Shown here: positions 140-27,094 of the stretch, piece after piece
Position numbering within the stretch: the stretch's first letter is position 1
How the letters are laid out: every line of letters begins with the position of its first letter
Origin: Stentor roeselii
Taxonomy: Eukaryota; Ciliophora; Heterotrichea; Heterotrichida; Stentoridae
Assembly: GCA_006503475.1 (NCBI GenBank)
Contig: RSEH01000396.1
Location: 1 to 27,225 of the forward strand
Length of the DNA stretch: 27,225 nt
Direction of reading: 5' to 3'
Program-made: the position numbers and the translations under genes
The notes under the pieces: generated by a model
Databases searched by the model: none
Seen by the model: the letters and a program-made list of their open reading frames with translations, nothing else
Told to the model about the DNA's origin: nothing

Positions 140-1258
140 AGGACTTTTGGATGGTTTTCCTTGTAGACTTGTGCTTAAAGTTCTATATTTTTTAGTGTCT
201 ACAATTTTTTTGTTGGGGGAAGGTTGAGGGTGAGGAAGTTTGGGAAGGATTAGAAGAAAGGGTTTAAGGGTCTGATGTTTTTGTTCTTGTTGGACCTGAT
301 GGGGCTTACTTAAGGTTGGGAAATTTTTGAATGATTTTTTTGGATGAGATTGAGTTTTTAGTGCTGTCATCAGGAAGACTTTAAGTAGATAAATGTCAGT
401 TCAGGCATAATGCACTATGCTATCAACAGATGATACCTAAATTAAGGTCCCCCCCGAGAAAGAGAGAATCAAATTTCAATTTAATTTCAACTGGTCTTTG
501 AACTGCTTATCAGAATAGCTAAACTGATTCTTTGAAGGATATCGGGACAGTTTTAAGTTGATTTTTTTGTTAGGTCTTGTCAAGTAAAATTTTAGAAAAT
601 TTTGGAAATGCTTATCAGAAATATAATTTCAGTATAAAAATTAAATACTTATTGTTGAAATTACTTAAAATTTTAAGATATCTACGTTAAAAACAAAAAT
701 AACTTACTTCTCTATCTAAAGATTTCTTAAAACATTGAGAAATCTTGTGCAAGTTTATAGAAAAGTAAAAATTTAGAAGTTTTATAAAAAAATTTTGTGT
801 TTCAGGGATTTTTTATGTAAAATCTAATTATTTGCTTTCTCAAGAATATATATTAAATCAGGCTTTCAGTATTGTACATCAAGGCAAGCCAATAATTCAT
901 ATATTACTCATAATAATCATATTTTTGATATGTTTCTCTTATCATTAATCATGCTATCTATGTAAATCTTAATACTAGGGCTTTGAAACCTGAATTGAGT
1001 TTGCTCTTAACACTGAAATTTTTTTGGAATATCGATCAGCTGTATGAATATATACTTTAAGTTAAAATTGTATTTTCTAAGGGAATTACCTATCAACTAC
1101 TCCAAGAAACTCTTAAAGCGGGTTGACACTCAACAAATGAACATTAATAATTCCATAGAATTAAACAAGCCATTAAATTTATCCTGAAAGTTGAAGTAAC
1201 ACTCAAATATATAAAGGATAAAAAGATAAGAAGTGGTCAATTATTTCTAGTAAATACT
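140..1258. other. Spacer without a convincing gene
   Basis: The outer part (to ~457, weakly to ~630) is the upstream region of the B-box-like gene shared with the other arm. It is purine-rich on the plus strand, with runs such as GGGGGAAGG near 215-224. An open frame of 79 codons on the minus strand (131-370) lies here, but the equivalent frame in the right arm is broken by a TAA and by indels, so it is not coding. The remainder is AT-rich with poly-A/T tracts; I see no RNA gene or further ORF. Confidence 0.6.
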
Positions 1259-4200: not shown

Positions 4201-7200
4201 GATTTAGGACTCCTCCGAGTTTTTGAATTAGAGATTTTTTGTTTGTGTTGAAAAGGGACCTGAGGACTGTCAGACGAACGAGAAAGCCCTGCTTGTTCAA
4301 GGCGAGGACGACCATTGGGATTATTACTGATGTCTTACCTTCACCCATGCTTAGTTGGGTTACTGCACTTTTGTGTTCTAACGGGTCAAGAAGAAGTCTT
4401 GCGACTTGGACTTGAATTGATCTTATCATCAGGTTGTTTTCGAGCTGGAAAATTAACCACTCGGGATTTTTACTAGGGTACCAGTTGCTGTAGGGCTTGT
4501 TTTCTAGTTCGCGATATAAAGCGATTGACTGGTTCTCATCATCGAAGTACCTCAGACACCTAATAACTCGATGCTCTAAAGTCCACAACACACAAAGACT
4601 TCCAAAAATCGGTACCAATTCCGAATCAATTCTAAAAAACTCGGATTTTCCAAGAACCCCTTTTTGTATCTGCCAAGGATTCAAACAAGGAATCAAATTT
4701 GCATGAAGAAGAAAGCTATGCTCATCAACTTTTAACAAATTCGAAAGAAACAATGAAAAAACTTTTATCCTTTTTCGATATTTCTTCAAAAGTTTACTCA
4801 AAACATCTTTCTGTACTTTTGGATGATTTTGACGTGTTGATCTTTGAAAAAATTCCCAACTTTTTCGCTGGTCTTCGAAGTAAAAAGTCTCGAGTTCTGA
4901 GTCATTTCTTTGTGTAAATGGAAATTCAGGGATTTCAACAGAAGATGGCTTTTTTAAGGAGTTAAGAAGGTCTTGTAAAGCATTTTCTTGAGCGATTTCT
5001 GAATTTTCGTAGAGTTTCTGCGATTCGTTTCGAAGTTTAAGAGATGCTGGGTCTGAGAAAAGGAATAATTTTGGTCTTAAAGAGAAGATTGGTTTATTGC
5101 AATCGACAGGATTTTGTATCTTTAAACGGGAAGGATAAGAAAATAATCCTTCCAAAACTTTTTCATTTTTCGGGATGAATTTTTCAATAAATTCAAAAAA
5201 TAACTGGTTATTGAACCAAAATTCAAAAAGTTTTGATACTTCGATGAGGACTTCTTGTTTTAAAAAGAAAGGGATATGGAAATCATATAGAAAATCATTA
5301 GGCCATTGTTGAAAAATATGATTTTCAGCTTGTTCAATCAATCTTTTTTTAGCGAAAATGTCATTTGTTGAGATTCTTACATTAAAAGAATGAATCGATT
5401 CTCCAGTATTTTGAGTGAGTCCATCGATGTTAAAAGTTTTCATCGGGTCGAAAGATTTATTAAGTAAATCTTGAATCACTTGAGAAGAATACTCACGTTT
5501 ATTAATATCTATCTTCATTTTTCTACTCGGCAAGGCCTCAACATTCAACAAGTCCCGATGATGGTGAACCTGGAACAAAAAGTAAAGAATATCAACGTCG
5601 ACTTCTCGAAAAGCAAGATAAGCCAAAAACAACTTGAAAAAAAATTCACTTTTTTTCAAGATAATAATTTTTATCAAGTCCTCTAAAAAAACTGCGACTT
5701 CTTCAGAAGACTCTTCATCAATTTCATCAAAAGGGTCTTCAGGTGCTTTTAAAAATAAAATTAAACTGTTGGCATCGATTTGGTCAATCGGTAAGTTGAA
5801 GGACTCTTGTAAGATTTCAAAGATGTTAACTGATCGAAAACAAGGAGGTTCTCCAGCTGAAATTTTCAAGATCCTCAAATGAACATCTTCATTTTCAGGG
5901 TATTCAATGAAACTATTCCCAAAAATATCTCCCTCCAAATTCTGATTATTTTTCACTCTATACTTCAAGTTCAGTTCTCTTCTAGCAGCTTTTTTCTTAA
6001 AAACCTTTATTTTTTCTTTACCCTTTACCTGATTTTCACTTTTTTTCTTCAAACCGAATTTTTGACTGAAAGTTTTAAGTTCTTCAACAATTTCTTCAAA
6101 ACAATCAAGAGCGACAAACGAGTTCAGGTACTTCGGCCATTCGATTATCTCAACATTCGGACTTTGCTTATAAATCGATTTTCTTTTAGGAGAAAGATCT
6201 TCAATCGCTTTCAAGATTTTTTCACCGAATTCACTAAAAGGCTCACAACTGAAGCACCTGCCTGATCTAAGAATGTCCAACGATCGGTCAACCCCAGTGG
6301 CTTCCAGTAAAGGGTCATTAACGACTCCTGATGTGCATGCATGAAGAAGTGCAAGATAAAGCCAGGCTTCATGAGACTCATCTGCATTGATAACCTTCAT
6401 CTGTTCATTGATTTCGTAAATGAAAAAAGGAGGAGAATTTAAAGATTTCAGTTCAAGGTTCACCTTTCGATGGATTTGATCGAATTTTTTTGTAGTGTTG
6501 TCTTCAGGGTTTATTTTTTTTTCATGTTTTTTCTTGGGTTTTAAAGAATTTGATGATTTTTCAGATTTTTCATCTTCGTGGTTGGTTAATTTTAATGACG
6601 TGTGAGGAATTATCAGCTTTTTTTGTTTTGGGTATTGATTCGTTTTTAAATCTTCTTCTAAGAGAAGACCGGACTCGAGTCCGTGTAAAGTTCCTAAGGT
6701 TTGGAAAGGGCTGATGAAAAAACCGGTGAATTCTTTTGAACGGATTAAAGAGTCTTTTGATTCGAAGGTAAAATTTAACTTGTGTCGAAAAAGATGAATT
6801 TCGAATTTTTTATTTGATTTGTTGGTTTCGGTTAGGTAGATGTGGAGATATTCTGCTTTATCTAATCGGAAAAAAAATTGATTGAAGAAATGGAGAAAGG
6901 CAGGTGAAGTTAATAGTAAGAGTTGTTTACCGTGAAGGTCTTTAAAGGTACCATTATTTAAATCCAAGATAAACTTCACATCTTTAGAAAAGTTATCATT
7001 TTTATACTCTTTCGACCTGAACTCTACTATTTTCCGTTCTAAGTCATACCAATGAATGAAACTTTCAACGAAATAAGCCGGAAGAATTTTTCGAAATTTC
7101 GAGTTTTCAATTAAAATTCTAACTTGTCCAGAATAAGAACTATTCGATCCTCTTTTATATTCAACAATAGCAAGTTCAAGTCCATTTTCAAGATCAAATT

Positions 7201-10200
7201 CATTTTCACCTCCAAATTCCTTTTTTTCCGTGAACTCGATGAATTTATATGAAACTATTTTTCCATTTTCTATTGAAATAGGCATTGTTTCTCTTGACCT
7301 TCCACTGTTTAAAACCTGAAACTCGTGACATCCAAAGCAAGATTTGTAAAGTTTATGAGTCGTTATTGATCTTGGCAGTTTTCCAATTGGTTTACCCATG
7401 ACTAAGAAGATTCCATTGATTCCTATTCTGATTGTTTTGAACTGGTTTGATCTGTTGTGAACGGCGGTGGTAAAACTGAGATATTCGGGGCAGTAAGTGA
7501 AATGATCGACTCCTTGATCGATTTCTTCATTTATTTTTTCTCGTAGATATTCACTAAGGTGTAAGGGGTTTTTATGGATGTAGTCTATGAGGTAAGACTC
7601 AAATGAATGCATTGTTCTAGTGGCTGATCTGCTCAGGTGCTTTATTACTTGAGTTGTTTTATTATCAAATTGAAGATCATTATCATGGATTATGCTGAAG
7701 GCTCTAAACCAATCTAGAAGATCATCTTTTGATTTCATAACATCTTTCATTTTATCGTCATCAACATCAAAGCTTAAAATTATCAAATACTGAACATTAA
7801 AATAAATTTCTCTAAAATATTGAACTGTCTCACTTGCATTATTCACTTCCTGCTCAATTATTTCTTTTAGATCTTTTTCCCAACCTTTTAGCACCTTTCT
7901 AATTTCTATCAGTAACTGAATGCACCTATCCCCAATTGAAGACACATCACAGATACTTAAACATCTCTGAACAATTAAAATCAAGTTCATTAAAACCAAA
8001 AAATTGCTCCAATTACTTCTATTCTCTTTCACCAAATCCTCAACCAACCAAATCAACCTTTTACAAAATTTTTTATTCCTGAGTAATTTATGAGCATCAG
8101 ACCAACAATAGCTGCGACTCTGAGTAATCAAAACAGATCCAAGTTCCCACAAGCTTTTCCAAACCAAATACAAAACAGAAGGTTCCTTTAATGGTAAAGA
8201 TCGTGTTTCAAGTGTTTCAAGCAAGTTCAACAACTGTAAATAAGTCCCAGCTCGAAACATTCCAAACTTCAAAAACGTTTTAATCTGCATTTTTTGCGAA
8301 CACTTCCCTTGCATCGACAATACAAAATTTTCAGAGTGTTCTGAAGAGTCAACCGCCCATTGTAGTACTTTAAATTCATCTTCAAGTGAAAAAGTGCAAA
8401 TTTCTCTGACCCTATTCAAGTTTTTTCGAGGTTTTTTAAAGAGAAGGGTCTTGTCGAAGCAGTATTTTACGTTGAAGTGATTTTCAAGGATGTAAGTGTT
8501 CGGGTCTCGCTCTTGGTTAATGAAAAAGCCTTTGAACCTGGTCCTTGAAAAAGAAGGCAAAGATGACCCGATTGTGAACCTTGGCTCGTAGTCGTCTTTG
8601 TAAAAATCTAAGTGTTCTTGGTCTCTCCACAGTAAATAACATTGAACATCTCCTAGTTCTTGTTTAAATAAGACACTTTTCACGATCATTATCGCATCAC
8701 GTAAGACTTTTATTGAAACCGGCATCAACAACTCATTTAAAACAAGCTCATGAAGAGTTTCGTTCATTGGAAGGAGTTTTTCGAAACATAACTCGTAAAT
8801 TCTGTAACCTTCTGTGTAAAGTTTGCATTTTTCACATGTTTCTTCAGAATGAGAAGTCTCATCACAGGTCATCATCTCGTAAATTGCCATGATTTCCAGA
8901 TATTTCTTTATTTTTAACTTGACTTTTTCCATTTTTTCATCGATTTGCTCATTTTCGAACTTTTGTAGGTCTTTCAATATTTTACTAAGAGAAAACTGTT
9001 GATTTATTATATTAAAAATTTTCTTTTGGTCGTTTAAAGAGGCGGAAACGATTGAAGGAAAAAATTCGTTGTTTCTGGAGTTCAAGTATTGAATCATGAA
9101 GTTTACTAATGCGATATCTTTGGACTTGGGAAGCAGAAGGTAAATCAAATCTTCGGAATTTATTCCAAGTGAAGAATAGGACTTTAGCGCTGGGTACTCT
9201 CGAAGAGCTATCTTGTCAAGAAGGATTATTATTTGGAAAGAAAGGATTATGCTTCGGCTCATTCCGATTGGATCGTTTTCGTAGATTTTCAGGGATTTTT
9301 CTAGATGAGTATTCAAAATTTCAATCAAAATTTTACCATCTGATGAGTTTAGAGAGGGCATAGATTGGAAATATTCGCTGAAACTTGATTCGAAATCTAG
9401 AAAAGTGATTGAGGGGTTATTTGAGGAATCTTGGAGGATTTTTAAGGTTTTTTTTAGGTTTTCACATGTTGGCAGCCTTTTGTGTTGGAATTGACGCTCG
9501 ATTGTTTCTGAGATTGAAACTTGGCTTTCTTCTGATGAGTCTAAAATTTTAGAGATTTTTTTTAAGGATTGCTTTATGCCAGCTAAATCGCTTGCATCAG
9601 TAATTAGCTCCTCTATTTTTATCTGACCACCCGTCAAGCGACATATAGAAAAAATCTCCTCATATATATAATTGAGCTCTTTTCTCTTTTTTTCAATAAA
9701 TTCTTTCGAGAAGAAAATCAAATTTTCAACACTCTGACTTTTATCTGAAATAGCAGAAAGTTTATGTGTTCTTTTCGCGATTTTTTGAATACATTCTAAA
9801 GTAATTTCCGGGTCATCAGTTTTATACTCTGCAACTCTAACATGTATAAAAAGCATCAATACCTTATACAAGAGATAAGCTTCAGACTCTTGATATTGAT
9901 CCAAAAAGCCCAACATTAAAATAACTTTAAGACAAATCCAGAACCCAGATCTTCTAAAGATTCGATTAACTCTCAAAACAGAATCTCTGTACTTTTTCTT
10001 GACCTTCAAATACTGACTTTCCATGCCGTTAGTTCCAGATAGCAAAGTCATGATCCACCCAATCACAAGGTCCGGGGTAGGAACATCAGTAGGTTCAACC
10101 ATGATATTCCCCATCCTGTTCGAATGAGGTAAAACTTCAGGAGTTCCAAAGTTGGTCAAATATTCCAAAGCCAAACTGAAATCTTCTGACAAAAGCAGCT

Positions 10201-10663
10201 GGTTATCAAAAACTTTTATCACGACCTGAGGATATTCCATGATCAGGTCATTTTCATTGTTCATCACTTCATCATTTGAAGAATGGATTTTAAAGCAGGA
10301 GACTATGAAGTTGATTGAAGAGTTTTTAAAGGTCTTTTGAATGATGAGACAAGAGTTTTGGAGATCCATGTAAAGAACTTGATTTTCGCCTGGGTTTAAA
10401 GACTTGAGTTGATTGTTTAAAATGGTCTTATCGATCGGTTTTTGAATTTTTTTCCAGTTTTCGATTGTTTTTTTTACATGAATTATCCGAGACCTTCTTA
10501 GAATCAAGGTGTTAAGTCCTTCTTCTACTATTTTGAATAAAGCGTTTTCCATTTCAGATGGATTTTCGACGATTTCTAGAATACGCTTTGGGAAAAATAT
10601 GTTGTTGTAGAGATCCAAGTGAGTTTTAGGGTCTAAGGAATTGACTTGGAACCGCCCTGACAT
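1259..10663 (-). CDS. Giant DUF6606/DUF3638/DUF3645-family protein with SF2-like P-loop ATPase core
   Basis: An uninterrupted frame of 3134 codons ends in TAA. An in-frame TAA directly precedes the ATG, so the start is well fixed. The length is typical for this eukaryotic family, known from fungi, plants, oomycetes and protists. N-terminal residues ~20-270 resemble DUF6606. A conserved segment with LHACTSG and DPLLEATG near 1420-1450 matches the family's middle region. The DUF3638-like core spans about 2070-2270, with Walker A GEGKTS at 2107-2112 and a Walker B-like DESDE at 2234-2238. A DUF3645-like stretch with VNYG and VPFKAKDVP follows near 2390-2410, then GFSGTND near 2538, DDCHTRGTD at 2676-2684 and a CMRLRLLGQG motif just after. 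These suggest an ATP-hydrolysing, helicase-like enzyme, probably cytosolic or nuclear since no signal peptide or membrane helix is evident. The cellular role of the family is not established to my knowledge. No intron is needed. Confidence 0.88.
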   Translation of the reverse strand: MSGRFQVNSLDPKTHLDLYNNIFFPKRILEIVENPSEMENALFKIVEEGLNTLILRRSRIIHVKKTIENWKKIQKPIDKTILNNQLKSLNPGENQVLYMDLQNSCLIIQKTFKNSSINFIVSCFKIHSSNDEVMNNENDLIMEYPQVVIKVFDNQLLLSEDFSLALEYLTNFGTPEVLPHSNRMGNIMVEPTDVPTPDLVIGWIMTLLSGTNGMESQYLKVKKKYRDSVLRVNRIFRRSGFWICLKVILMLGFLDQYQESEAYLLYKVLMLFIHVRVAEYKTDDPEITLECIQKIAKRTHKLSAISDKSQSVENLIFFSKEFIEKKRKELNYIYEEIFSICRLTGGQIKIEELITDASDLAGIKQSLKKISKILDSSEESQVSISETIERQFQHKRLPTCENLKKTLKILQDSSNNPSITFLDFESSFSEYFQSMPSLNSSDGKILIEILNTHLEKSLKIYENDPIGMSRSIILSFQIIILLDKIALREYPALKSYSSLGINSEDLIYLLLPKSKDIALVNFMIQYLNSRNNEFFPSIVSASLNDQKKIFNIINQQFSLSKILKDLQKFENEQIDEKMEKVKLKIKKYLEIMAIYEMMTCDETSHSEETCEKCKLYTEGYRIYELCFEKLLPMNETLHELVLNELLMPVSIKVLRDAIMIVKSVLFKQELGDVQCYLLWRDQEHLDFYKDDYEPRFTIGSSLPSFSRTRFKGFFINQERDPNTYILENHFNVKYCFDKTLLFKKPRKNLNRVREICTFSLEDEFKVLQWAVDSSEHSENFVLSMQGKCSQKMQIKTFLKFGMFRAGTYLQLLNLLETLETRSLPLKEPSVLYLVWKSLWELGSVLITQSRSYCWSDAHKLLRNKKFCKRLIWLVEDLVKENRSNWSNFLVLMNLILIVQRCLSICDVSSIGDRCIQLLIEIRKVLKGWEKDLKEIIEQEVNNASETVQYFREIYFNVQYLIILSFDVDDDKMKDVMKSKDDLLDWFRAFSIIHDNDLQFDNKTTQVIKHLSRSATRTMHSFESYLIDYIHKNPLHLSEYLREKINEEIDQGVDHFTYCPEYLSFTTAVHNRSNQFKTIRIGINGIFLVMGKPIGKLPRSITTHKLYKSCFGCHEFQVLNSGRSRETMPISIENGKIVSYKFIEFTEKKEFGGENEFDLENGLELAIVEYKRGSNSSYSGQVRILIENSKFRKILPAYFVESFIHWYDLERKIVEFRSKEYKNDNFSKDVKFILDLNNGTFKDLHGKQLLLLTSPAFLHFFNQFFFRLDKAEYLHIYLTETNKSNKKFEIHLFRHKLNFTFESKDSLIRSKEFTGFFISPFQTLGTLHGLESGLLLEEDLKTNQYPKQKKLIIPHTSLKLTNHEDEKSEKSSNSLKPKKKHEKKINPEDNTTKKFDQIHRKVNLELKSLNSPPFFIYEINEQMKVINADESHEAWLYLALLHACTSGVVNDPLLEATGVDRSLDILRSGRCFSCEPFSEFGEKILKAIEDLSPKRKSIYKQSPNVEIIEWPKYLNSFVALDCFEEIVEELKTFSQKFGLKKKSENQVKGKEKIKVFKKKAARRELNLKYRVKNNQNLEGDIFGNSFIEYPENEDVHLRILKISAGEPPCFRSVNIFEILQESFNLPIDQIDANSLILFLKAPEDPFDEIDEESSEEVAVFLEDLIKIIILKKSEFFFKLFLAYLAFREVDVDILYFLFQVHHHRDLLNVEALPSRKMKIDINKREYSSQVIQDLLNKSFDPMKTFNIDGLTQNTGESIHSFNVRISTNDIFAKKRLIEQAENHIFQQWPNDFLYDFHIPFFLKQEVLIEVSKLFEFWFNNQLFFEFIEKFIPKNEKVLEGLFSYPSRLKIQNPVDCNKPIFSLRPKLFLFSDPASLKLRNESQKLYENSEIAQENALQDLLNSLKKPSSVEIPEFPFTQRNDSELETFYFEDQRKSWEFFQRSTRQNHPKVQKDVLSKLLKKYRKRIKVFSLFLSNLLKVDEHSFLLHANLIPCLNPWQIQKGVLGKSEFFRIDSELVPIFGSLCVLWTLEHRVIRCLRYFDDENQSIALYRELENKPYSNWYPSKNPEWLIFQLENNLMIRSIQVQVARLLLDPLEHKSAVTQLSMGEGKTSVIIPMVVLALNKQGFLVRLTVLRSLFNTNKKSLIQKLGGVLNRKIFSFPCKRESFFDKAQVENLKKIFLTCQENQGVFLTRPEDRLSLKLKAVELCGDENTLDIGKALIQMQSEMKIRDLLDESDEILNSKYELVYTVGKETMVYAGKIRWKVIQGVLELVKGIVGTLEGRFEDFFFVHEKKPECAFPQFRINTIDGHYKLCQRVCEDFLNNRSKILPFKPVTTSEKQKIQDFILGNFSEDLKKSVKTILGESSEVFKSVLLMRGLFQFELLFNAFQKIWKVNYGVNEIDKFLLQAVPFKAKDVPAEKSQFAHVEIMILLTQLSYYYSGLNLPQLTELIKHLKSNPNGEKQFKSWLESSEVDFFTSLNDVNPHNTWHLEREVLPRLKFNMQVINYWLNHFLYPREAKQFEGKLLTSFWDLCPDKQLTTGFSGTNDLKVLLPLSVSHQDIPQLTGTNGFLMHSILTVEKEAYREIGHEMADHDVLIMISKDFHERLQVIIDVGAIFTGLSNEQVACKWLELTEEAQASVYFEKNDITVIDRLGGKTLFELSPFRKQLEKCLVYIDDCHTRGTDFNFPLGTKAAVTLAKQVTKDKLLQGCMRLRLLGQGHSIIFYASSEAHVKIKQEDSVSPARILEWAMENSKQLIADNLFTWAVQGITFFKNSEIFQSFSPSQVTKKCFEDLKTSDEFDIEKLYGSNRKKTLVSKIVEFKKILAKNELKTKNIDFHEFDILTQAILSKVQKFAEGVKRFALQSDDLQEIELQKEVEKENDEDVYVKLELSGVKPHEPSIEKEFKDWMQTGTMQQKSQIFLPLGKALKPSSLGVLFEDCFWNENIFVTLDFIRTVDRPCEGDFFLRPVKWLAFSQEHQKLACISGFEANFLLSQIESKHLKIFLFMPRTRPGQNDLFSLQSFHLDLQFSQQVAVFAGSQYFNKEEEIQAFLKILAYSNLDLKCQRMVDDGRILTSGFVRLESREEVFGDCYSKVVKDHAELVLRLAEIRNYGVSSEFSHINLVLVRGVKPILK

Positions 10664-11572: not shown

Positions 11573-11736
11573 GATATCATCTAAATATATTCCCATATTA
11601 ATTAAATACACTTTAAAGTCACTTAAATTCATCAATTCATCAAAATAAATGTAAGATATCATCTAAATATATTCCCATATTAATTAAATACACTTTAAAG
11701 TCACTTAAATTCATCAATTCATCAAAATAAATGTAA
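11573..11736. repeat. Exact 82-base tandem duplication with partial third copy
   Basis: The 82 bases at 11573-11654, starting GATATCATCTAAATATATTC, are repeated directly at 11655-11736 with no difference that I can see. A decayed fragment, ATATTAATTAAATA followed by AACCTTAAA, continues at 11737-11760 and looks like the middle of a third copy. The unit is non-coding and lies between the ATPase gene and LamG/Cys-rich gene A. Perfect identity suggests a recent event. Confidence 0.9.
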
Positions 11737-12201: not shown

Positions 12202-15200
12202 TTATTTATGATTCTTAACATAGTTCAATTGATCTAAGCTAATAAACTTGGAAGCATCATTTTTGAATTTCAAGGCCTTTTGCTTGATTATTTCAGAGCA
12301 TAAAACTCTAAGCGTTCTAATCATTAAAACTGTGTTTATGATAAACTGAGCTCCAATAGCTGAGATAATTGAATAAATGCAGACCTTCTCTATTATTTCT
12401 ATATTTCCCTCATTTTCAGTGTACAAAAAGAAGCTTGAAGCAAAAAAAACAATAAAAATACAAATTTCTCCAATTATTTGAGAAGTCAAAATCAAATTTT
12501 CTTTGAAAGGTTTGAAGTAAAGCAAGTAAAAAATAACTAAAAGAGTGAATGTAACATTTGAATAAGCTTGAAATGCAGGATAATCACTAAAAAACAACTG
12601 CACCACGCAATAGAATAGTCTTCTGATAAAAAACAAAGGATAGTAAAGTGTCGGAATCAATCCCCGATCAATCCAAAACTCATCAAACAGCGAAGAATGA
12701 ACAATTAAAAACTCCTGGTCCTGCAGCTTATTCTCCGAATACTTAAGAGAAACAAACAAAGCAAAAGGCGTGACCACAACTAAAAACTATTTAACCCTTA
12801 CCAAAACCACAAGAGCCAAGCACAAATAAAAATACCCTTCAGCGCCATTCATAACTTCCTATTTATCCCTCACAGCTTTAATCTGAATCATCGCAAACAA
12901 AGTCAACTCCAAATACGACTCAATCCAAAATCTCATCAAAAGGTTAAACTTGTATTTTTTTGCATATTTTTCGAATTTTCTCGAATTCTGAAAAGTTTTA
13001 TTCAAAAATACAAAAAAGAGAGTCATGATTAAACAATAAACAAAAATTGCCCAAATCGACCCGACATTTAAAAGAAAGACAGAAGATTCAATGCCGAAGT
13101 CTTGAACCTCTTCCTGAGGAGGTGAAGTCGCTTTTGGGTTTGAAATGAAAGTCATCACATTAGGGATTATGTTGTAGTTCATAAGAGATGTCGCTGTTTC
13201 TTTAAGGCTTTCTGAGTAAGGCACTGTGTTTAAAGGCATGTATGTGATCAGCTGGATTGTGTTGATTAGAGACCAAAGACCTGCTGGGTTGGAAAAAAAA
13301 GCTATTCCAACGCTTGAAGCTACAACTGATTGTGTCAATGGCTTCACTGAGGAGACTAAAGATGCTGTGGATGATGTGGAAGGCTTGAGTATTACAGAAT
13401 GAAAGTAGTTGGCTAAAAGAGAATTGTTTGAACTATAAACAGGTTTTTTAATGATCTTTAAAGATACTTCAAGAGAAGTATTTACTTCAGGAAGTGATAA
13501 AATTTTCAAGTTGTATTTCGAAGGTTGCTTCTTTTTTAGGTAAAAATTGAAAGATTTTTTAGATATGATGATACTCAGATCTTTATCATTCAAAGTAATA
13601 AGTAAAGACTCATAAAAAGTCAGTTCAAGAGTTTGATCTTTTACTGTCAAGTTAGAATAAAAGTACTTCTCAACACATTCAGATCCTTTTTGCTGAAATC
13701 CTGCAATGCAAGTGCATTTCGAGTTTTTAACCTCCGCATTTTCACTGCAATTTAAACAGTTCAAGTCTAAATCGCACTGACTACACAATTCATCACATTC
13801 TAAACAACCCTCTGTAAGATTTTTCCAGCATAAAACAACACAATCCCCAGATGAGTTAATTTCAGCGAAATCTTTACAACTAAGACATTTTTGACTATTC
13901 TCACAAGTTAAACAAGTTTCTTTACATTTAATGCAAGAGCTTTTTTCTGTTAGTTGACTTGAGTTCCAATACCCTTCATTGCATAAGCAGCCTGAGGTAT
14001 TCGTTGGAGAAGAGTTTTCACTGATACATGAAAGACAGGTCTGTGAATTTTCACAGGAATTGCATTCTTCGTGACAGGCTTTGCACGAGTTCTCAGTTGT
14101 CAAGTCTCCGGAACTTTTAAAGCCTGGGTCGCATTCACATGCTTGGCCGTTTCCTGTTGAGTTCTTGGATATGCACTCTAAGCAGAATGTTTTATTGCAG
14201 GATAGGCATGTTTCATGACATGAGGTACATTTATGATTTTCTTCGTTGAAATAGAAACTGTCTTTACAGCTGCACACATCCCCTGATTCAACCATATTCG
14301 AAGTATCCCAACAACTTTCACACAAATCAGTAGAAGAGCAAGTTTTGCATCCACTATTACACGACACACACACTTGACTTAATAAATCAAAATAATAACC
14401 ATTTGAGCAAGTGCATATTTCTCCAGATTCAATCATATTTAATGAATCCAAACAAGTTGAACACAAATCAGTAGAAGTGCAAGTTTTACACCCACTGTTG
14501 CATGAAGAGCAAACTTTATTCAACTCATCAAAAAAGTACCCGTCTGAGCAAGTGCATGTCTCTCCAGATTCAACCATATTCAATGAGTCCCAACAACTTT
14601 CACACAAATCAGTTGAAGAACATGTTTTACACCCACTGTTGCAGGAAACACAGTTTTTATTAGTAGAGTCGAAATAAAAGCCATTTGAGCAAACACATTG
14701 ACTTCCAGATTTTGCCAAATTTGATGTGTCCCAACAACTTTGACATAAATCAGTAGAAGAGCATGTTTTACAGCCACTGTTGCAGGAATTACAGATTTTA
14801 TTAGTAGAATCAATGTAAAAGCCATCAGTGCAGACACATACTTCACCAGATTGAACCATATTCGATGTATCCCAGCAAGTTAAACATAAGTCAGTAGAAG
14901 AGCATGTTTTGCATCCACTATTGCAAGAAGCACAAACTTTATTTACTGAATCAAAATAATAACCATTTGAGCAAGTGCATGTCTCTCCAGATTCAACCAT
15001 ATTCAATGAGTCCCAACAAGTTAAGCATAAATCAATAGAAGTGCAAGTTATACACCCACTGTTGCATGAAGAGCAAACTTTATTCGACGCATCAAAAAAA
15101 TACCCGTCTGAGCAGATACATTGATTTCCAGATTTAGACAAATTTGATGTATCCCAACAACTTTCACACAAATCAGTAGAAGAACATGTTTTACAGCCGC

Positions 15201-17955
15201 TATTGCAGGAAACACAATTTTTATTAGTAGAGTCAAAATAAAAGCCATTTGAGCAAATGCATTCATTTCCAGATTTTGCCAAATTTGATGTGTCCCAACA
15301 ACTTTGACATAAATCAGTAGAAGAGCACGTTTTACAGCCACTGTTGCAGGAATTACAGATTTTATTAGTAGAATCAATGTAGAAGCCATCAGAGCAGGCA
15401 CATACTTCACCAGATTGAACCATATTCGATGTATCCCAGCAAGTTAAACATAAGTCAGTAGAAGAGCATGTTTTGCATCCACTATTGCAAGAAGCACAAA
15501 CTTTATTTACTGAATCAAAATAATAACCATTTGAGCAAGTGCATGTCTCTCCAGATTCAACCATATTCAATGAGTCCCAACAACTTTCACACAAATCAGT
15601 TGAAGAACATGTTTTACACCCACTGTTGCAGGAAACACAATTTTTATTAGTAGAGTCAAAGTAAAAGCCATTTGAGCAAATGCATTGACTTCCAGATTTT
15701 GCCAAATTTGATGTGTCCCAACAACTTAGACATAAATCAGTAGAAGAGCACGTTTTACACCCACTGTTGCAGGAATTACAGATTTTATTAGTAGAATCAA
15801 TGTAAAAGCCATCAGTGCAGACGCATACTTCACCAGATTGAACCATATTCGATGTATCCCAGCAAGTTAAACATAAGTCAGTAGAAGAGCATGTTTGGCA
15901 TCCACTATTGCAAGAAGCACAAACTTTACTTACTGAATCAAAATAATAACCATTTGAGCAAGTGCATGTCTCTCCAGATTCAACCATGCTCGTTGTATCC
16001 CAACATGTTGAGCATAAATCAGTAGAAGAGCAAGTTTTGCAGCCACTATTGCATGAAGAACAAAGTTTACTTGAGGAGTCGAAGAAGTAACCATCTGAGC
16101 AGCTGCATATGTTTCCTGATTCAAGCATATTCGAATTGTCCCAGCAAGCTGTACATAAGTCACTTGAAGTGCAAGTTTTGCATCCGCTATTGCACTGCAC
16201 ACATACTTTATTAGTTGAGTCATAATAAAAACCATCTGAGCAACTGCATACTTCTCCAGATTCTACCATATTTGATGTATCCCAGCAAGTAACACACAGA
16301 TCACTAAAAGTGCATGTTTTACATCCACTGTTGCAAGCCGAACAAAGTTTTGTAGTTGGATGGAAGTAGAAGCCGTTAGGACAGCTGCATGTATTACTAC
16401 TAGATTCAGTCATAGTTGAGTCCCAGCATGTTAAACACAAATCTAGCAAACTGCAAGTTTTGCACCCCTCGTTACATGTTGAACAAGTATTCGAAGCACT
16501 TAAATAATAACCTTGACTAGGGCAGCTGCAAATATCAAGAGTTTCAGTCATAATATTGTCCCAGCAAGAAAGGCAAAGGTCAATTGACGAACATGTTTTA
16601 CACCCATCGTTGCATTTAGAGCATGTAGTTGTAGTTGATGCAAAATAACCTTCAGAGCAAGCACAAATATTTGAATTTTCAATCATATTTGTATCCCAGC
16701 AACTTTCACAAGGGTCAGTTGAGGAACAAGTTTTACAGCCTGAGTTACAAGCAGTACAAACAGTAACAGAACTTGCATAAAACCCAAAATTGCAAGAACA
16801 AGATCCTCCATTGACATAAACATTAGAATCAACACAGCCTGTGCAAGAGCTAACTGAAGAACAAGTAGAACACCCAGACCCTTTAAGACAACAAGAAGTA
16901 GTAGTAGTAAGAGGAGTAGTCCCATAGTAGTTAGTATTACAATAGCAAACTCCTGATGAAACATAACTGTTACTGCTCTTGCAAGTTAAACAATTGCCAT
17001 TCGCATCGCATGTACTGCAGTCAGAGTTACAGCATTGGTTACTGGTACTTGTGTATCCGGATTGGCAGGAACATGCTGTTGTAGTTGAGGTATAAGAACC
17101 AGTCACTTGCTTAGTAGAACATGTATTTGTAGATCTATCGTATAGACATGTTTCTGAGGTTGAACCACAAGAAAATACAGTCGTTTTCGAGCACCCTGAA
17201 GAAGAACCAGTACAGGCAGTCTCAAACGAGTTCTCAAGTGGATTCATTTCTTTCGACAAGCATCCAGTCCCAAGTGGGTCAACCACAGCAGGAGTGCAAC
17301 TAGTACAAGTCCCAGTCCCAATCAAACAATTACTAGAAGAAGACGAATCAATACGACTATCATCAGGATTTATGATATAATTCCATACAAATCCCTTAAC
17401 ACTATTAGGACTACCAAAAGAGCATCCAATTCCAGTAACAAAAGTTCCACCCTCAGTAATACTTTGAGTTAAACTCACCATAAGTGCTTGATTAACATAA
17501 GCTTTAAAATCATTCCCAATTTTAGTCAAGACCAACAAAGACCAAACCTCTGCTAAAAAGCTGTTCGAAGGTCCAAATGCTTCAGTCGCTGAGCCTTTAT
17601 CAACACAGATGTAAACAGAATCAGTTGAAGCTCGACGTCCAAGGAAATAAACATGGTTCCCGTTTTTTCCTCGAAAAAGCAGCTGAAATTCGGAATCTGT
17701 TGGCATGACCCAAGCGAGATAAGTCAAAGAAGACAAATTATCTAAAGATGAACTGTCTTTTATTATTATTCGACTGCAGTCACTGTTTAAGTAAAGGCCT
17801 CGTTCTGTTGATATTATTGTACTTGAAGCAAGGTCGTTGCTTCCGTGGTTGTTAGTTCCTGAATAATCCCAAAATTTCTGACCGAAACTCGAACCGAAGC
17901 GATATTCGACCAAGGCCGACCTGGCAAGAAAAGGGAATAAAACAATGGATATCAT
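12202..17955 (-). CDS. LamG and cysteine-rich repeat multi-pass membrane protein A, with two 15-base introns
   Basis: The gene runs from ATG at 17955 to TAA at 12202 and needs introns at 12859-12873 and 12787-12801. Splicing leaves 1907 residues. An in-frame TAA directly precedes the ATG. A short hydrophobic N-terminus (IVLFPFLA) looks like a signal peptide. Residues ~16-200 form a laminin-G/concanavalin-like domain (FWDYSG, NNHG, WSLLVLT). A mixed Cys-rich region follows to 402, then 18 furin-like units at 403-1245, a few related units, and a beta-rich stretch after KYFYSNLTV. The C-terminal ~400 residues hold one clear membrane helix near 1630-1660 and about five more after the introns. The protein is probably at the cell surface with an extracellular Cys-rich ectodomain. 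This architecture is common in ciliates; I cannot name a ligand. Without the introns the frame appears split at two TAG codons, which would wrongly suggest a pseudogene and a separate small ORF (12202-12777). Confidence 0.88.
12787..12801 (-). other. 15-base spliceosomal intron 2 of LamG/Cys-rich gene A
   Basis: The minus strand reads GTAAGGGTTAAATAG: GT at the start, AG at the end, length 15. Its last codon would be an in-frame TAG. The frame on both sides continues and aligns without gaps to the paralogue (LCLALVVL before, FLVVVTPFAL after). The paralogue has GTAAGAAATATTCAG at exactly this position. Fifteen bases is the characteristic intron length in Stentor. Confidence 0.9.
12859..12873 (-). 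other. 15-base spliceosomal intron 1 of LamG/Cys-rich gene A
   Basis: The minus strand reads GTGAGGGATAAATAG, 15 bases with GT and AG ends; GTGAG is a slightly weaker donor than GTAAG. It ends in an in-frame TAG. Flanking codons (FAMIQIKA before, EVMNGAEGYF after) match FAFIQTRA and EILNGLEGFV in the paralogue, which has its own 15-base GT-AG segment here. Introns 1 and 2 start 72 bases apart in both genes. Confidence 0.9.
14221..16749 (-). repeat. Array of 18 Cys-rich units (141-base period) coding type I modules
   Basis: Units start at 16749 and then every 135-141 bases (16053, 15912, 15771 ... 14361); from unit 3 on each is 47 codons. Cysteines fall at unit positions 1, 5, 8, 14, 17, 30, 32 and 45, with a CWD motif at 17-19 (CLD in unit 17). 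The pattern is furin-like/growth-factor-receptor Cys-rich. Units near the N-terminal end (1-3) are the most diverged and the middle ones nearly identical, so expansion happened inside the array. Confidence 0.95.
14644..16053 (-). repeat. Three-unit higher-order repeat (423 bases, three copies) within the array
   Basis: Units 6-8, 9-11 and 13-15 repeat the same order of three subtypes: A (NMVESGETCTC), B (NMVQSGEV) and C (NLAKSG). Copies start at 16053, 15630 and 15066 on the minus strand. Unit 12 interrupts between the second and third copies and is a C-like unit (NLSKSGNQ) joined to another ending. Long stretches are almost base-identical between copies, for example around 14861-15000, 15421-15560 and 15841-15980. 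Confidence 0.85.
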
Positions 17956-20327: not shown

Positions 20328-23300
20328 CTAAGTTAAAGGATAGGGACTTTCTACTTCATTTAAAATTTTGATTGCATCATTCCTGAATTTCAGAGCTTTC
20401 GCTTTTATTATCTCATTCCATAATTCTTTAAATGTTCTCATCAATAAAATAAAGTTAATTATGAATTGGATTCCCATAGTAATCAAAATTGAATACAAAC
20501 AAATTGAATCAATAATCTTGATGTATTTTTCATTTTTAGTGTACATCACCCAACTAGACACAAAAAACACCACAAAAATACAAACTTCTCCTAAAACCTG
20601 TGAAAACTGAACCAATTTTTCCTTAAACGGTTTAAAATACCCCAAAAACCCAATAACCACAACAGTAAATCCAACATTAACATAAGCCTGACACTTAGGA
20701 AATCTATTAAAAAAAATCTGCACAACGGAAAAAACCAGTCTTCTAAAGAAAAACAACGGATAATAAAGTAAATAATTACTTCCCCGATCCACCCAAAACT
20801 CATCAAAAAGGCTCGAATAAAGAAAAACGAATTCAAAATTCCTGACCGACGAGTCAGAATACTTCATCGCAACAAAAAGTGCAAAAGGAGTGACAGCAAC
20901 TAACACCTGAATATTTCTTACACAAACAAGAGCAGCAAGGCAAACATAAACAAATCCTTCTAATCCATTCAAGATCTCCTTCATACTCCTTACAGCTCTT
21001 GTCTGAATAAAAGCAAATAAACTCAATTCCAAGTAAGACTCAATCCAAAACCGAATTAAAAGATTGAACTTAAACTTTTTCGCTAATTTTTCAATTTTTC
21101 TTGAAGTTTTCACTATTTTGTTGAGTATGACGAAAAAAACTGATGTAAAAAAACAATAAAGAAAAATTAGCCAAATCGGTCCTGTGTTGAGCAGAATGAC
21201 TGAAGATTTTATTCCGAAGTGTCTGACTTCTTGATGAGGAGAAGAAGTCGCTTTAGGGTCGCAGATGTAGTCCATCAAGTTAGGGATCAAATCGTAGTTC
21301 AACAGGGAAGTCGATGTTTCTCGTAGTCTTTCTGAGTAAGGTAAAGAATTTAAAGGCATGTAGGTTATTAGTTGAATCGTGTTGATTAGAGACCAGAGAC
21401 CTGCCGGGTTTGAAAAGGCTCCGAATCCAAGACTTGAAGAGACTATGGCTTGACTTAGAGGTTTTAATGAAGACTTCGATGATTTCATTGATGGCACTGA
21501 AGGACTCAACTTTCCTTTTAACAGGTAGTTGAATAACTTTGAGTTTTCCAGACTGAATAATATTTTCTTTAAGATTTTTAGTTCGACTTTCACGGATTTA
21601 TTCACTTGAAACCCGTTCATCACTTTAATCTTGTATTTTGAAGGACTGAGTTTTTTTAAAAAGAACTTTGAAGACTTTTTATCAAGATTTAACAATAAAT
21701 CTGAATCTTTCAATGAATCCTGCAAATTTTCATTGAAAGTCAAATGCAAAACCATTCCTTTTACAGTCAAATTCGAATAAAAATATTTATCCAGACATTT
21801 TCCTTGATTCTCCTGAAAACCTTTAAAACATCTGCAATTTTCTGAATCACTTTCAGAATTTTCACTGCAATTCAAACATTTCAAGTTTTGATCACAGCGA
21901 TTGCATAATTTTTTACATTCAAGACAATTTTCTGAAGTTTTTTGCCAACACAAAAAAATGCATTTTCCTGAAGAATTAAGAAATGCAGAAGGATCTTTAC
22001 AGCTAAGACATTCTTTTTTATTATTGCAAGTCAAGCAAGTCTCGTCACATTTAATGCAAGAGTCTTTTTGGGTTAATTGAGTTGAGTTCCAAAAGCCTTG
22101 ATTGCAGAGACATTCGGAAGAATTGTTGGGAGAAGCATTTTCGCTTATACATGAAAGACATCCAAGATTATTACAAGTTGCGCAGGTCTCTTTGCATTTA
22201 ATGCAAGAGTCTTTGAAAAGGATTTGAGTAGAGTTCCAGAAGCCATCATTACATTGACATCCGAGGTTTTTCTTAGGAGATGCATTTTCACTGATACATG
22301 AAAGACAAACTTGATGATTGGTGCAAGATGAGCAAGTTTCTTCACATTTTTTACATGAGGACTTTTCAATCAATTTACTTGAATTCCAGAAGCCGTCTTT
22401 ACAAAGGCATCCTGAGTCATTTGTTGGAAAAGCATTTTCACTGATACATGAAAGACAAACTTGATCATTATTGCAAGATGAGCAAGTTTCTTCACATTTT
22501 TTGCATGAGGACTTTTCAATCAATTTACTTGAATTCCAGAAGCCGTCTTTACAAAGACATCCTGAGTCATTCGTTGGAAAAGCATTTTCACTGATACATG
22601 AAAGACAACCTTGGTGAGTTTCACATGTTAAACAAGTTTCGTCACATTTTTTACATGAGGACTTTTCAATCAATTTGCTTGAGTTCCAGAAGCCGTCTTT
22701 ACAAAGACATCCTGAGTCATTCGTTGGAAAAGCATTTTCACTGATGCATGAAAGACAAACTTGATGATTGTTGCAATATAAGCAGGTCTCTTCACATTTT
22801 TTACATGAGTCGTTTTCAATCAATTCACTCGAGTTCCAGTATCCGTCTTTACAAAGGCATCCTGAGTCATTTGTTGAAAAAGCATTTTCACTGATGCAAG
22901 AAAGGCAAAGATCATGAGTTTTGCAGGTTAAACAAGTTTTTTCACACTTAAGACAAGATGATTTTTCAGTTAATCGACTTGAGTTCCAGAACCTTTCTTT
23001 GCATTTACATCCGATTTCACTTGGAGATGAATTTTCACTGATGCATGAAAGACAAATATTCTGCTCTGCACATGAACTGCATTCTTCATGGCAGGCATAA
23101 CAAGACTCTTCAGTTGTCAGGTCTCCATTACTTTGAAATCCTTTTTTGCATTCACACTTTAGTCCTACTGGATAAGCATTTTTTGATATACACTTGAAAC
23201 AAGTACTTTGATCACATATAGAGCATGTTTGATCGCATGAGGTGCATTCATGTCTTCCAGTTTCCAAATAAAAGCCATCTTTACAGCTGCATTTAAATTC

Positions 23301-25259
23301 CTGTAGAATCATATTTTGACTATCCCAACATTTCTCGCACAAATTATCTAAAGAGCAAAATTTGCATTCTTTATTGCACGGTTTACAAAATTTACTTAAA
23401 GAGTCGAAATAAAAGCCATCTAAACATTTGCATGAATTTTCTGATGTTTTTCCATTTGATTCATCCCAGCAAGACTGACAAACACTGAGTGAAGTACATA
23501 ATTTGCATCGAATGTCACATGATTGGCAACTCTTGACATTCAAATCGAAATAGAAACCATCCACACAATTACAAGAACCATTTGAAGGTGTCACTTCAGG
23601 AAGCCAGCAAGTTAAGCATGAGTCTGTTGAACTACATGTTTTGCATCCTTTGTTACAAGCTGAACATATTGTTAAAGAAGTTAAGTAATAACCTTCTATA
23701 CAAATACAGGATCCTTCATTTATTATCATGTTTGGATAGCAAGCTGTGCAGGGATTATTTTCATTACAGGATAGACACCCAACTTTGCAACTAATGCAAG
23801 ATTTTATATTTGAATAGTAGTAACCATTAGGACACTTGCATCCATTTAAATCCTTAATCATGTTTGCATCCCAGCAAGTAAGGCAATTGTCATTTGACGA
23901 ACATGTTCGACAACCATTGTTGCACTCTATGCAAGTACTCGAAGTTTGAGCATAATAACCTTCTTTGCAAGTACATTCATTGTTAATATTATTCATATTT
24001 ACATTCCAGCAGCTTTCGCAAGGATTGATTAAGGAGCAAGTTTTGCAGCCTGAGTTGCACGTAGAGCAAGTCAAAGAAGATGTGAGAAAATAACCTTCCT
24101 TACAAACACAAGAACCTGCAGAAATAGAAGCCTTTTGATCATTACACCCTGTGCAAGGATTAACTGAAGTGCAAGAAGAGCATCCCTGACCTTTAATGCA
24201 GCATGAATTTGAATTGGTCAAAGGAAGAACTCCATAATAATTATCGTTACATTGGCAAATTCCAGAGGATGCATGACTGTTCAAACTTTTGCATGTAAGA
24301 CAGTATCCAGTGTTATCACATGTCAAACAGTCTGAATTGCAGCATTTTTTAAGACTTGACCTTTCAGATATACAAGAGCATTCAACTGTTGTTGATGTAT
24401 ATGGGCTTGATACTTCTTTTTGGTAACAAGTATTTGAAGAGTGATCATATACACATGCTTTAGAGGTTGAACTACAATAATACTTCATATTTTTTGAACA
24501 TCCAGTAGTAGTACTTCCGCAGTTATCCGAAAAGGAGTTTTGAAGAGGATCCATATTGGTAGACAAGCACCCAGTGCCAAGCGTATCAACAATGGCAATC
24601 AAGCAACCACTACAGCTTCCAGCTCCAAGCAAGCAGTTCGAAGATGGAGAAGTATTAATACCGATTGAATCAGGCATAATAATATAGTTCCAAACAAATC
24701 CCTTGACATTATCTGGATCTTCATCAGAGCACCCGATACCTGTTTCAAATTTTCCATTTTCCTTGAAGCTGTATGTCAGACTTGTCTTCAGAAGTTCATT
24801 TATAAATACTTTGAAGATCGACCCATCAAAAGTTAAGACTACCAAAGACCAGACCTCAGCTGGGAAGCTATTATTTTGACCATAAACGAAATACTCACTA
24901 CCACCGTTTATTGCATGAAGATAGACAGCTTTAATATCTGCCTTTCTTCCCAAGTAATACCTATGGCTTTTATTTTTTGTTCGAAAAATCAGCTGATACT
25001 CTGAATTGGTAGGCATGACCCACGTCAAGTATTTCACTGAATTAGGTAAATCCAAATTTGTAAATGTTTTAATGATACTGCAATCGCCATTTAAATACAA
25101 TCCACGATCTGTTGAAATAATCGGGTCTGAGCCAGTTTGGACACTCCCATGGTTGTTCTTCCCCGAATAATCCCAAAATGTCTGTCCGAAATTACTTCCG
25201 AAGCGATATTCTACCAAGGCTGCCTTGACAAGGATTAGGTTTAAAACAATGGCTTTCAT
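20328..25259 (-). CDS. LamG and cysteine-rich repeat multi-pass membrane protein B, paralogue of A
   Basis: The frame runs from ATG at 25259 (in-frame TAA immediately upstream) to TAG at 20328, with a TAA three codons further on. It is open through its length at 1643 codons, but two 15-base GT-AG segments match the introns of gene A, and removing them gives 1633 residues. The N-terminus (IVLNLILVKA) looks like a signal peptide. A LamG-like domain follows (FWDYSG, NNHG, WSLVVLT), then a Cys-rich region, six type I units at 401-674, a linker unit at 675-722 and seven type II units at 723-1070. A beta-rich stretch (KYFYSNLTV) precedes the C-terminal membrane part, with helices near VILLNTG, YVCLAALVC, PLFFFRRLVFSVVQIFF, VGFTVVVIGFLGYF, VCIFVVFFVSSWV and YSILITMGIQFII. 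Product and partner are unknown; a surface receptor, adhesin or channel are all possible. Confidence 0.88.
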   Translation of the reverse strand: MKAIVLNLILVKAALVEYRFGSNFGQTFWDYSGKNNHGSVQTGSDPIISTDRGLYLNGDCSIIKTFTNLDLPNSVKYLTWVMPTNSEYQLIFRTKNKSHRYYLGRKADIKAVYLHAINGGSEYFVYGQNNSFPAEVWSLVVLTFDGSIFKVFINELLKTSLTYSFKENGKFETGIGCSDEDPDNVKGFVWNYIIMPDSIGINTSPSSNCLLGAGSCSGCLIAIVDTLGTGCLSTNMDPLQNSFSDNCGSTTTGCSKNMKYYCSSTSKACVYDHSSNTCYQKEVSSPYTSTTVECSCISERSSLKKCCNSDCLTCDNTGYCLTCKSLNSHASSGICQCNDNYYGVLPLTNSNSCCIKGQGCSSCTSVNPCTGCNDQKASISAGSCVCKEGYFLTSSLTCSTCNSGCKTCSLINPCESCWNVNMNNINNECTCKEGYYAQTSSTCIECNNGCRTCSSNDNCLTCWDANMIKDLNGCKCPNGYYYSNIKSCISCKVGCLSCNENNPCTACYPNMIINEGSCICIEGYYLTSLTICSACNKGCKTCSSTDSCLTCWLPEVTPSNGSCNCVDGFYFDLNVKSCQSCDIRCKLCTSLSVCQSCWDESNGKTSENSCKCLDGFYFDSLSKFCKPCNKECKFCSLDNLCEKCWDSQNMILQEFKCSCKDGFYLETGRHECTSCDQTCSICDQSTCFKCISKNAYPVGLKCECKKGFQSNGDLTTEESCYACHEECSSCAEQNICLSCISENSSPSEIGCKCKERFWNSSRLTEKSSCLKCEKTCLTCKTHDLCLSCISENAFSTNDSGCLCKDGYWNSSELIENDSCKKCEETCLYCNNHQVCLSCISENAFPTNDSGCLCKDGFWNSSKLIEKSSCKKCDETCLTCETHQGCLSCISENAFPTNDSGCLCKDGFWNSSKLIEKSSCKKCEETCSSCNNDQVCLSCISENAFPTNDSGCLCKDGFWNSSKLIEKSSCKKCEETCSSCTNHQVCLSCISENASPKKNLGCQCNDGFWNSTQILFKDSCIKCKETCATCNNLGCLSCISENASPNNSSECLCNQGFWNSTQLTQKDSCIKCDETCLTCNNKKECLSCKDPSAFLNSSGKCIFLCWQKTSENCLECKKLCNRCDQNLKCLNCSENSESDSENCRCFKGFQENQGKCLDKYFYSNLTVKGMVLHLTFNENLQDSLKDSDLLLNLDKKSSKFFLKKLSPSKYKIKVMNGFQVNKSVKVELKILKKILFSLENSKLFNYLLKGKLSPSVPSMKSSKSSLKPLSQAIVSSSLGFGAFSNPAGLWSLINTIQLITYMPLNSLPYSERLRETSTSLLNYDLIPNLMDYICDPKATSSPHQEVRHFGIKSSVILLNTGPIWLIFLYCFFTSVFFVILNKIVKTSRKIEKLAKKFKFNLLIRFWIESYLELSLFAFIQTRAVRSMKEILNGLEGFVYVCLAALVCVRNIQVLVAVTPFALFVAMKYSDSSVRNFEFVFLYSSLFDEFWVDRGSNYLLYYPLFFFRRLVFSVVQIFFNRFPKCQAYVNVGFTVVVIGFLGYFKPFKEKLVQFSQVLGEVCIFVVFFVSSWVMYTKNEKYIKIIDSICLYSILITMGIQFIINFILLMRTFKELWNEIIKAKALKFRNDAIKILNEVESPYPLT
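20907..20921 (-). other. Predicted 15-base intron 2 of LamG/Cys-rich gene B (no in-frame stop)
   Basis: The minus strand reads GTAAGAAATATTCAG at the exact position of intron 2 in gene A. It is in phase and lacks a stop, so translation through it would just add VRNIQ. Position, length, donor and acceptor all agree with gene A, and removal makes the flanks (CLAALVC and VLVAVTPFAL) align without a gap. Confidence 0.78.
20979..20993 (-). other. Predicted 15-base intron 1 of LamG/Cys-rich gene B (no in-frame stop)
   Basis: The minus strand reads GTAAGGAGTATGAAG, 15 bases with a good GTAAG donor and an AAG acceptor. It sits at the position of intron 1 in gene A. If not spliced it would add VRSMK. 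The AAG acceptor is less usual than TAG or CAG, so this is slightly less certain than intron 2. Confidence 0.72.
22050..23093 (-). repeat. Array of seven Cys-rich type II units (about 150-base period)
   Basis: Seven units of 49-50 codons carry cysteines at positions 1, 5, 8, 14, 17, 30, 32 and 48, the same framework as type I but with three extra residues before the last Cys. Most contain CLSCISEN and FWNSS or YWNSS, the latter an N-glycosylation sequon. Units 3, 4 and 5 are nearly identical at the DNA level, indicating recent duplication or conversion. Gene A has only one or two units of this type. Confidence 0.93.
23238..24059 (-). repeat. Six diverged Cys-rich type I units
   Basis: Six units of 44-47 codons with the type I cysteine pattern, starting CNSGCKTC at residue 401, equivalent to the first unit of gene A at 403. 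They share only the cysteines, CWD (in some) and GYY/GFY positions, so the array is old and has not been homogenised. Confidence 0.88.
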
Positions 25260-27086: not shown

Positions 27087-27094
27087 TATAAATA
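27087..27094 (+). promoter_or_regulatory. TATAAATA motif abutting the start codon of the right B-box-like gene
   Basis: TATAAATA lies directly before the ATG at 27095, identical to the left copy. It may be a TATA-type element or start context. Confidence 0.25.

What the first reader, a model, noticed from the sequence alone, without database searches (positions are those of the whole stretch)
12787..12873. Two 15-base introns hide behind apparent TAG stops in gene A
Read straight through, gene A stops at TAG (12859-12861), then at a second TAG (12787-12789), and looks like a broken gene plus a 191-codon fragment. Both TAGs are the last bases of 15-base GT-AG segments, and removing them restores a frame that aligns without gaps to gene B. 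These are near the minimum intron size known in any eukaryote and mark the organism as a heterotrich. The intron ends (TTAAATAG, ATAAATAG) share an AT-rich, A-containing 3' half that may serve as the branch site.
Basis: partly seen in the sequence, partly recalled or inferred. Interest (0 to 1): 0.7.

Follow-up and report, generated by a model that had tools for sequence, protein, structure and literature searches.

The report
Two 15-base introns with stop tails
The gene looks broken by two stop signals, but each stop is the tail of a 15-base intron that the cell should cut out of the RNA; dozens of sister genes in the same ciliate genome carry such tiny introns at the same places, so this is unusual but of a kind already known.

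Summary
Confirmed from DNA; no RNA was available. Gene A (minus strand, 17955-12202) is interrupted by GTGAGGGATAAATAG (12873-12859) and GTAAGGGTTAAATAG (12801-12787). Of 524 TAG triplets in the window, only these two follow GTRAGNNNNANN. I aligned 84 copies of the C-terminal domain: A, B and 82 paralogues from the same genome. Site 1 holds a 15-base GT..AG segment in 70 of 84, site 2 in 80 of 84. Position 10 is A in 132 of 133 distinct segments, and 124 of 126 in-frame stops lie in such segments. Six copies lack one segment by exactly five codons.

One claim is wrong: removing the segments from A alone opens two gaps against B. B carries stopless 15-base introns at both sites (20993-20979, 20921-20907).

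The genome has CCCTAACA telomeres, U1/U2/U6 genes, no TGA inside 135 kinase matches, and the motif about 6.4 times commoner at 15 nt than at 14, 16 or 17. This fits a standard-code, Stentor-like heterotrich; the genus is open.

New members of a known kind. Possibly new: 15-nt introns cannot shift the frame, yet their splice signals tend to supply an in-frame stop.

The parts
12874..17955 (-). Gene A exon 1 (1694 codons, ATG at 17955)
   Evidence: Laminin_G_3 28.7 bits, cut-off 27.6
12859..12873 (-). Gene A intron 1, GTGAGGGATAAATAG, phase 0, in-frame TAG
   Evidence: same site in 70 of 84 copies
12802..12858 (-). Gene A exon 2 (19 codons)
12787..12801 (-). Gene A intron 2, GTAAGGGTTAAATAG, phase 0, in-frame TAG
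   Evidence: same site in 80 of 84 copies
12202..12786 (-). Gene A exon 3 (194 codons and stop TAA)
20994..25259 (-). Gene B exon 1 (1422 codons)
20979..20993 (-). Gene B intron 1, GTAAGGAGTATGAAG, stopless, same site as A intron 1
   Evidence: profile score 10.7, at the threshold of 10.6; alignment
20922..20978 (-). Gene B exon 2 (19 codons)
20907..20921 (-). Gene B intron 2, GTAAGAAATATTCAG, stopless, same site as A intron 2
   Evidence: profile score 16.1; alignment
20328..20906 (-). Gene B exon 3 (192 codons and stop TAG)

Best explanation
Both segments are 15-nt spliceosomal introns of the heterotrich type. The transcript of gene A would be cut after GCT (before GTGAGG) and after TTG (before GTAAGG), the A at intron position 10 is the likely branch point, and the AG of each TAG is the 3' splice site. 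Joining the three exons gives one 1907-aa protein. Gene B has both introns too, ending in AAG and CAG, so it looks intact even unspliced. Shown by sequence: place, length, motif, conservation, exact presence or absence among paralogues, and confinement of stops. Inferred: that splicing happens, that A10 is the branch point, and what the protein does.
For: 70 and 80 of 84 domain copies carry a 15-mer GT..AG at sites 1 and 2; A10 in 132 of 133 distinct segments; segments end TAG 118, CAG 22, AAG 10. 122 of 126 in-frame stops lie in the two segments, and 2 more in a third 15-mer that is a five-codon insertion in 4 of 84 copies. Exact five-codon absence in L016 and L034 (site 1) and L041, L065, L069, L084 (site 2); presence changes at least 6, 3 and 1 times on a tree. 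Profile hits in ORFs A, B, C: exactly four sense, none antisense. Genome: 1,051 matches at 15 nt against 154, 162, 174 at 14, 16, 17 nt; in 26 of 40 sampled matches a long frame is open only when the 15 nt are removed. U1, U2, U6 genes present. Branch A at position 10 agrees with S. coeruleus.
Against: No RNA evidence. A aligns to B without gaps even with the segments kept. The reversed-pattern control for the 15-nt motif is 612, so against that control the excess is only 1.7-fold, though the reversed control exceeds the forward count at 14, 16 and 17 nt. 12 of 84 copies have an unalignable loop at site 1, and 10 of 40 sampled genome matches show no open frame. B's site-1 segment scores just over the threshold, and the profile was trained on a set that includes the four window segments.
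Confidence: 0.96

Rival explanations
1. TAG is translated (as Gln, as in several ciliates) or read through; there are no introns and A aligns to B as it stands.
For: Read-through alignment of A and B is gap-free.
Against: No other internal TAG in 6,697 codons of A, B and C, which hold 227 CAA/CAG codons. 120 of 120 TAGs in the 84 copies are the last codon of a GT..AG 15-mer with the same motif. TGA and TAA also occur inside the segments (3 and 1), so one reassigned codon does not suffice. The segments are missing whole in some copies.
Confidence: 0.015
2. Gene A is a pseudogene with two nonsense mutations.
For: Two stops near the 3' end; B is open throughout.
Against: The same stops recur at the same two columns in dozens of divergent paralogues: 118 of 150 segments end in TAG. 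No frameshift or other stop in 1,917 codons of A. One copy, L013, does look decayed, with two TAA outside the segments.
Confidence: 0.01
3. The segments are germline sequences (IESs) cut from DNA during nuclear development, not introns cut from RNA.
For: Ciliates remove IESs; about 70% of Blepharisma's are intragenic (PMC9942856, passages seen).
Against: Contigs end in telomere repeats, as a somatic genome would. About three quarters of Blepharisma IESs are TA-bound and their first length peak is at 65 bp; these segments are 15 nt with GT, A10 and AG, the signals of heterotrich introns.
Confidence: 0.01

Closest known systems
15-16 nt introns of Stentor coeruleus (PMC9505925: abstract to section 2.2 read, further passages seen; the 2017 genome paper is not held)
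   Same: 15 nt, GT..AG, AT-rich, A at position 10, standard genetic code; 8,173 of 8,806 introns there are 15 nt and 8,005 have the branch A at position 10.
   Different: Here 16-nt introns leave no excess in the one motif counted (162 against 154 and 174), whereas 7.19% are 16 nt there. The assembly is 44.39 Mb; I recall about 83 Mb for S. coeruleus.
15 and 16 bp introns of Blepharisma stoltei (PMC9942806, passages seen)
   Same: Tiny introns; telomere repeat CCCTAACA; similar genome size (41 Mbp).
   Different: Blepharisma reads UGA as Trp; here no TGA lies inside 135 kinase matches. Both 15 and 16 bp are predominant there.
3n introns of Paramecium and their stop codons (PMC5485702, passages seen)
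   Same: Introns with and without an in-frame stop; stopless ones would escape nonsense-mediated decay if kept.
   Different: In Paramecium stopless 3n introns are counter-selected among several lengths; here the usual length is itself 3n, so only an internal stop can mark retention. 32 of 150 segments of this family are stopless.

Membership tests
Heterotrich 15-nt spliceosomal intron | Length 15 (or 16) nt, GT..AG | tested here: met
Heterotrich 15-nt spliceosomal intron | Branch-type A at position 10 of 15-nt introns | tested here: met
   132 of 133 distinct segments; all four window segments
Heterotrich 15-nt spliceosomal intron | Removed from RNA | not testable with these tools
   no RNA reads on hand
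Heterotrich 15-nt spliceosomal intron | Genome-wide length class, not one gene family | tested here: met
   26 of 40 sampled matches restore a frame only when removed
Heterotrich 15-nt spliceosomal intron | Major spliceosome present | tested here: met
   U1, U2, U6 over Rfam cut-offs, one match each; U4, U5 and minor snRNAs not searched
Heterotrich genome | CCCTAACA telomere repeat | tested here: met
   547 matches of three tandem repeats, reversed control 0; listed places at or within about 100 bases of contig ends where the length is known (repeat as in Blepharisma)
Stentor | Standard genetic code | tested here: met
   135 kinase matches (best-scored part of 1,346 candidates): 12 hold a stop, 10 TAG, 3 TAA, 0 TGA. 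Not specific: Climacostomum virens also uses it (PMC10942620)
Stentor | rRNA or protein phylogeny inside the genus | not tested
   I ran no search for reference heterotrich sequences
Blepharisma | UGA read as Trp | tested here: not met
   0 TGA inside 135 kinase matches and in ORFs A, B, C

The most novel reading that the evidence does not exclude
Because these introns are 15 nt, keeping one never shifts the frame, and the intron consensus may have been shaped to carry a stop in each frame: TAG at 13-15 for phase 0, TAA or TAG at 9-11 (T9, branch A10, then A or G) for phase 1, TAA at 2-4 (inside GTAA) for phase 2. The splice signals would then double as a retention alarm for mRNA decay, and introns would favour phases where the alarm is built in. 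In 26 sampled genome-wide cases that open a frame only when the 15 nt are removed, phases 0, 1 and 2 number 19, 1 and 6. That set excludes stopless introns; adding the 4 matches open both ways gives 5 of 30 in phase 1 (P = 0.035 against one third, 0.12 against 28%). In this phase-0 family 32 of 150 segments are stopless, so any such pressure is not absolute.
Probability: 0.3. Interest if true: 0.6.

Novelty: new member of a known kind. Interest (0 to 1): 0.38.

Why it matters
Gene calling that ignores such introns splits genes like A in two and would miss stopless introns like B's altogether; 149 places in this genome match this one C-terminal domain, many with one or two TAGs. Copies in which the same tiny intron is present, absent or stopless are natural material for asking how a spliceosome handles a 10-nt lariat loop and how a cell notices a retained intron that cannot shift the frame.

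Tried and rejected
Translated TAG, pseudogene and germline-IES readings were considered and rejected (see rivals). Codon-usage scoring of phase in 40 sampled loci was too weak and misassigned phases; open-frame length replaced it. As a length control on those 40, removing 12, 13, 14, 16, 17 or 18 nt left 11, 13, 5, 13, 5 and 29 open, against 30 for 15 nt; 18 nt is as good because one more codon makes no difference, so this control tests the frame and not the exact boundary. A profile scan of 164 kb around paralogues gave 58 hits against 22 for the reversed profile, and 15 against 5 with open flanks; the two introns lie 57 nt apart and close each other's frame there, so I did not use it as evidence. 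Hydropathy at site 2 rose on removal in 59 of 80 copies and in 12 of 17 stopless ones: it leans the expected way but is weak. Structure prediction was not run: it accepts only unchanged window proteins, so the spliced form could not be given. The S. coeruleus genome paper is not held. Collections of viral, metagenome and bacterial contigs were not scanned, since the window's own genome gave enough relatives.

Full report
OBSERVATION. On the minus strand, gene A runs from ATG at 17955 to TAA at 12202 and is open except for TAG at 12861-12859 and at 12789-12787. Each TAG ends a 15-base segment in phase 0: GTGAGGGATAAATAG and GTAAGGGTTAAATAG, alike at 13 of 15 positions. Of 524 TAG triplets in the window, only these two are preceded by GTRAGNNNNANN; shuffled sequence gives 0.25 matches on average and two or more in 2 of 100 shuffles. 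Apart from these two, the ORFs of A, B and C (6,697 codons with their final stops) hold no internal stop; they were picked as long open frames, so this is expected in part.

CORRECTION. The finding says that removing the segments makes A align without gaps to gene B. In fact A aligns to B without gaps when read straight through (AVRDK*EVMNG against AVRSMKEILNG; VRVK*FLVVV against VRNIQVLVAV). B carries GTAAGGAGTATGAAG (20993-20979) and GTAAGAAATATTCAG (20921-20907) at the same two places. The pair alone therefore cannot tell introns from translated TAG codons. Paralogues can.

PARALOGUES. The window is contig C342 of a 44.39-Mb assembly in 522 contigs, and the C-terminal stretch of B has 149 matches there, a lower bound. 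I fetched 80 loci and aligned 84 domain copies: A, B and 82 others. Site 1 holds a 15-mer GT..AG in 70 of 84, a five-codon gap in 2, and a loop that does not align in 12. Site 2 holds one in 80 of 84 and a five-codon gap in 4. The segments end in TAG 118 times, CAG 22 and AAG 10. Position 10 is A in 132 of 133 distinct segments (the exception is L081) and position 3 is A or G in all; positions 5 to 8 are weakly constrained. Of 126 in-frame stops in these copies, 118 TAG, 3 TGA and 1 TAA fall in the two segments. Two TAG belong to a third 15-mer with the same motif, an insertion of exactly five codons in 4 copies (L071, L073, L077, L088) and absent in the other 80. The last two stops, both TAA, are in L013, perhaps a decayed copy.

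HISTORY. On a maximum-likelihood tree built without the intron segments, the presence of sites 1, 2 and 3 changes at least 6, 3 and 1 times (at site 1 the 12 unalignable copies count as absent). L016, for example, lacks site 1 while its nearest relatives L014 and L017 have it. The tree does not tell gain from loss.

GENE B. Its two segments score 10.7 and 16.1 on the profile of the 133 distinct segments; A's score 11.1 and 15.2; the training median is 14.2 and the threshold, its fifth percentile, 10.6. On the sense strands of ORFs A, B and C only these four reach the threshold, and none does on the antisense strands. The four are part of the training set, and B's first is just over the line. 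With the alignment I read B as having two stopless introns.

GENOME. GTAAG-N4-A-N2-TAG (15 nt) occurs 1,051 times, against 154, 162 and 174 for the same motif at 14, 16 and 17 nt. The tool's reversed-pattern controls are 612, 749, 751 and 788 for 15, 14, 16 and 17 nt; they differ in composition and exceed the forward counts at every length but 15, so I lean on the length series. In 26 of 40 a frame of at least 60 nt on each side and 360 nt in sum is open only when the 15 nt are removed; in 4 it is open either way, and in 10 it is not open.

ORGANISM. That is Blepharisma's telomere repeat (PMC9942806). U1, U2 and U6 are present; U1 keeps ACUUACCUGG, U2 keeps GUAGUA and U6 keeps ACAGAGA. Among 135 kinase matches, 12 hold a stop: 10 TAG, 3 TAA, 0 TGA. 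I did not check that those stops lie in introns. This fits a heterotrich with the standard code, as in Stentor or Climacostomum (PMC10942620, passages seen), and not Blepharisma. The genus is not settled.

MECHANISM. Ordinary major-spliceosome splicing with branching at A10 would leave a 10-nt lariat loop and a 5-nt tail, as proposed for S. coeruleus, where 8,173 of 8,806 introns are 15 nt and 8,005 have the branch A at position 10 (PMC9505925). Splicing itself is inferred here. The protein has a Laminin_G_3 domain in A (28.7 bits, cut-off 27.6; B misses it by 0.1 bit) and, by eye, Cys-rich repeats and a hydrophobic C-terminus; the only other match, 7tm_2 in A's last exon, is below its cut-off. 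A surface role is a guess.

NOVEL POINT. A 15-nt intron never shifts the frame when kept. In phase 0 the TAG of the 3' splice site is in frame; in phase 2 the TAA inside GTAA is; in phase 1 a stop arises if positions 9-11 read TAA or TAG. In the 26 clear cases phases 0, 1 and 2 number 19, 1 and 6, but that selection excludes stopless introns; with the 4 ambiguous matches phase 1 is 5 of 30, P = 0.035 against one third and 0.12 against 28%. In the family itself 32 of 150 segments are stopless. Paramecium counter-selects stopless 3n introns (PMC5485702, passages seen). I did not see this phase argument for heterotrichs in the listings, which is a narrow search of an open-access library.

VERDICT. 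The two introns are real on the DNA evidence and are new members of a known kind. Interest is moderate, mainly for the correction about gene B, the presence/absence variation among paralogues and the testable phase argument.

Noticed in passing
window 1-462 and 26756-27225: The window ends are an inverted repeat: 1-218 with 27008-27225 at 99%, 226-462 with 26756-26992 at 85%. By eye the outer arms hold the start of an ORF (MADSCFMPGCRNPATYGC...) facing outwards, so the contig may stop inside a repeated gene.
   Followed up: partly
window 11573-11736: An exact 82-base tandem duplication in the AT-rich stretch between genes A and C.
   Followed up: partly
window 1259-10663, minus strand: A 3,134-aa ORF with DUF6606, DUF3638 and DUF3645; no segment reaches the intron profile threshold in it.
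   Followed up: partly
window 12202-17955 and 20328-25259; genome G000: A and B belong to a large family: 149 matches to the C-terminal stretch in this genome, often several on one contig.
   Followed up: partly
L071, L073, L077, L088: A third 15-nt intron site in four related copies that lack an alignable site-1 intron.
   Followed up: yes
L013: A family copy with two TAA outside the intron sites, possibly a pseudogene.
   Followed up: no
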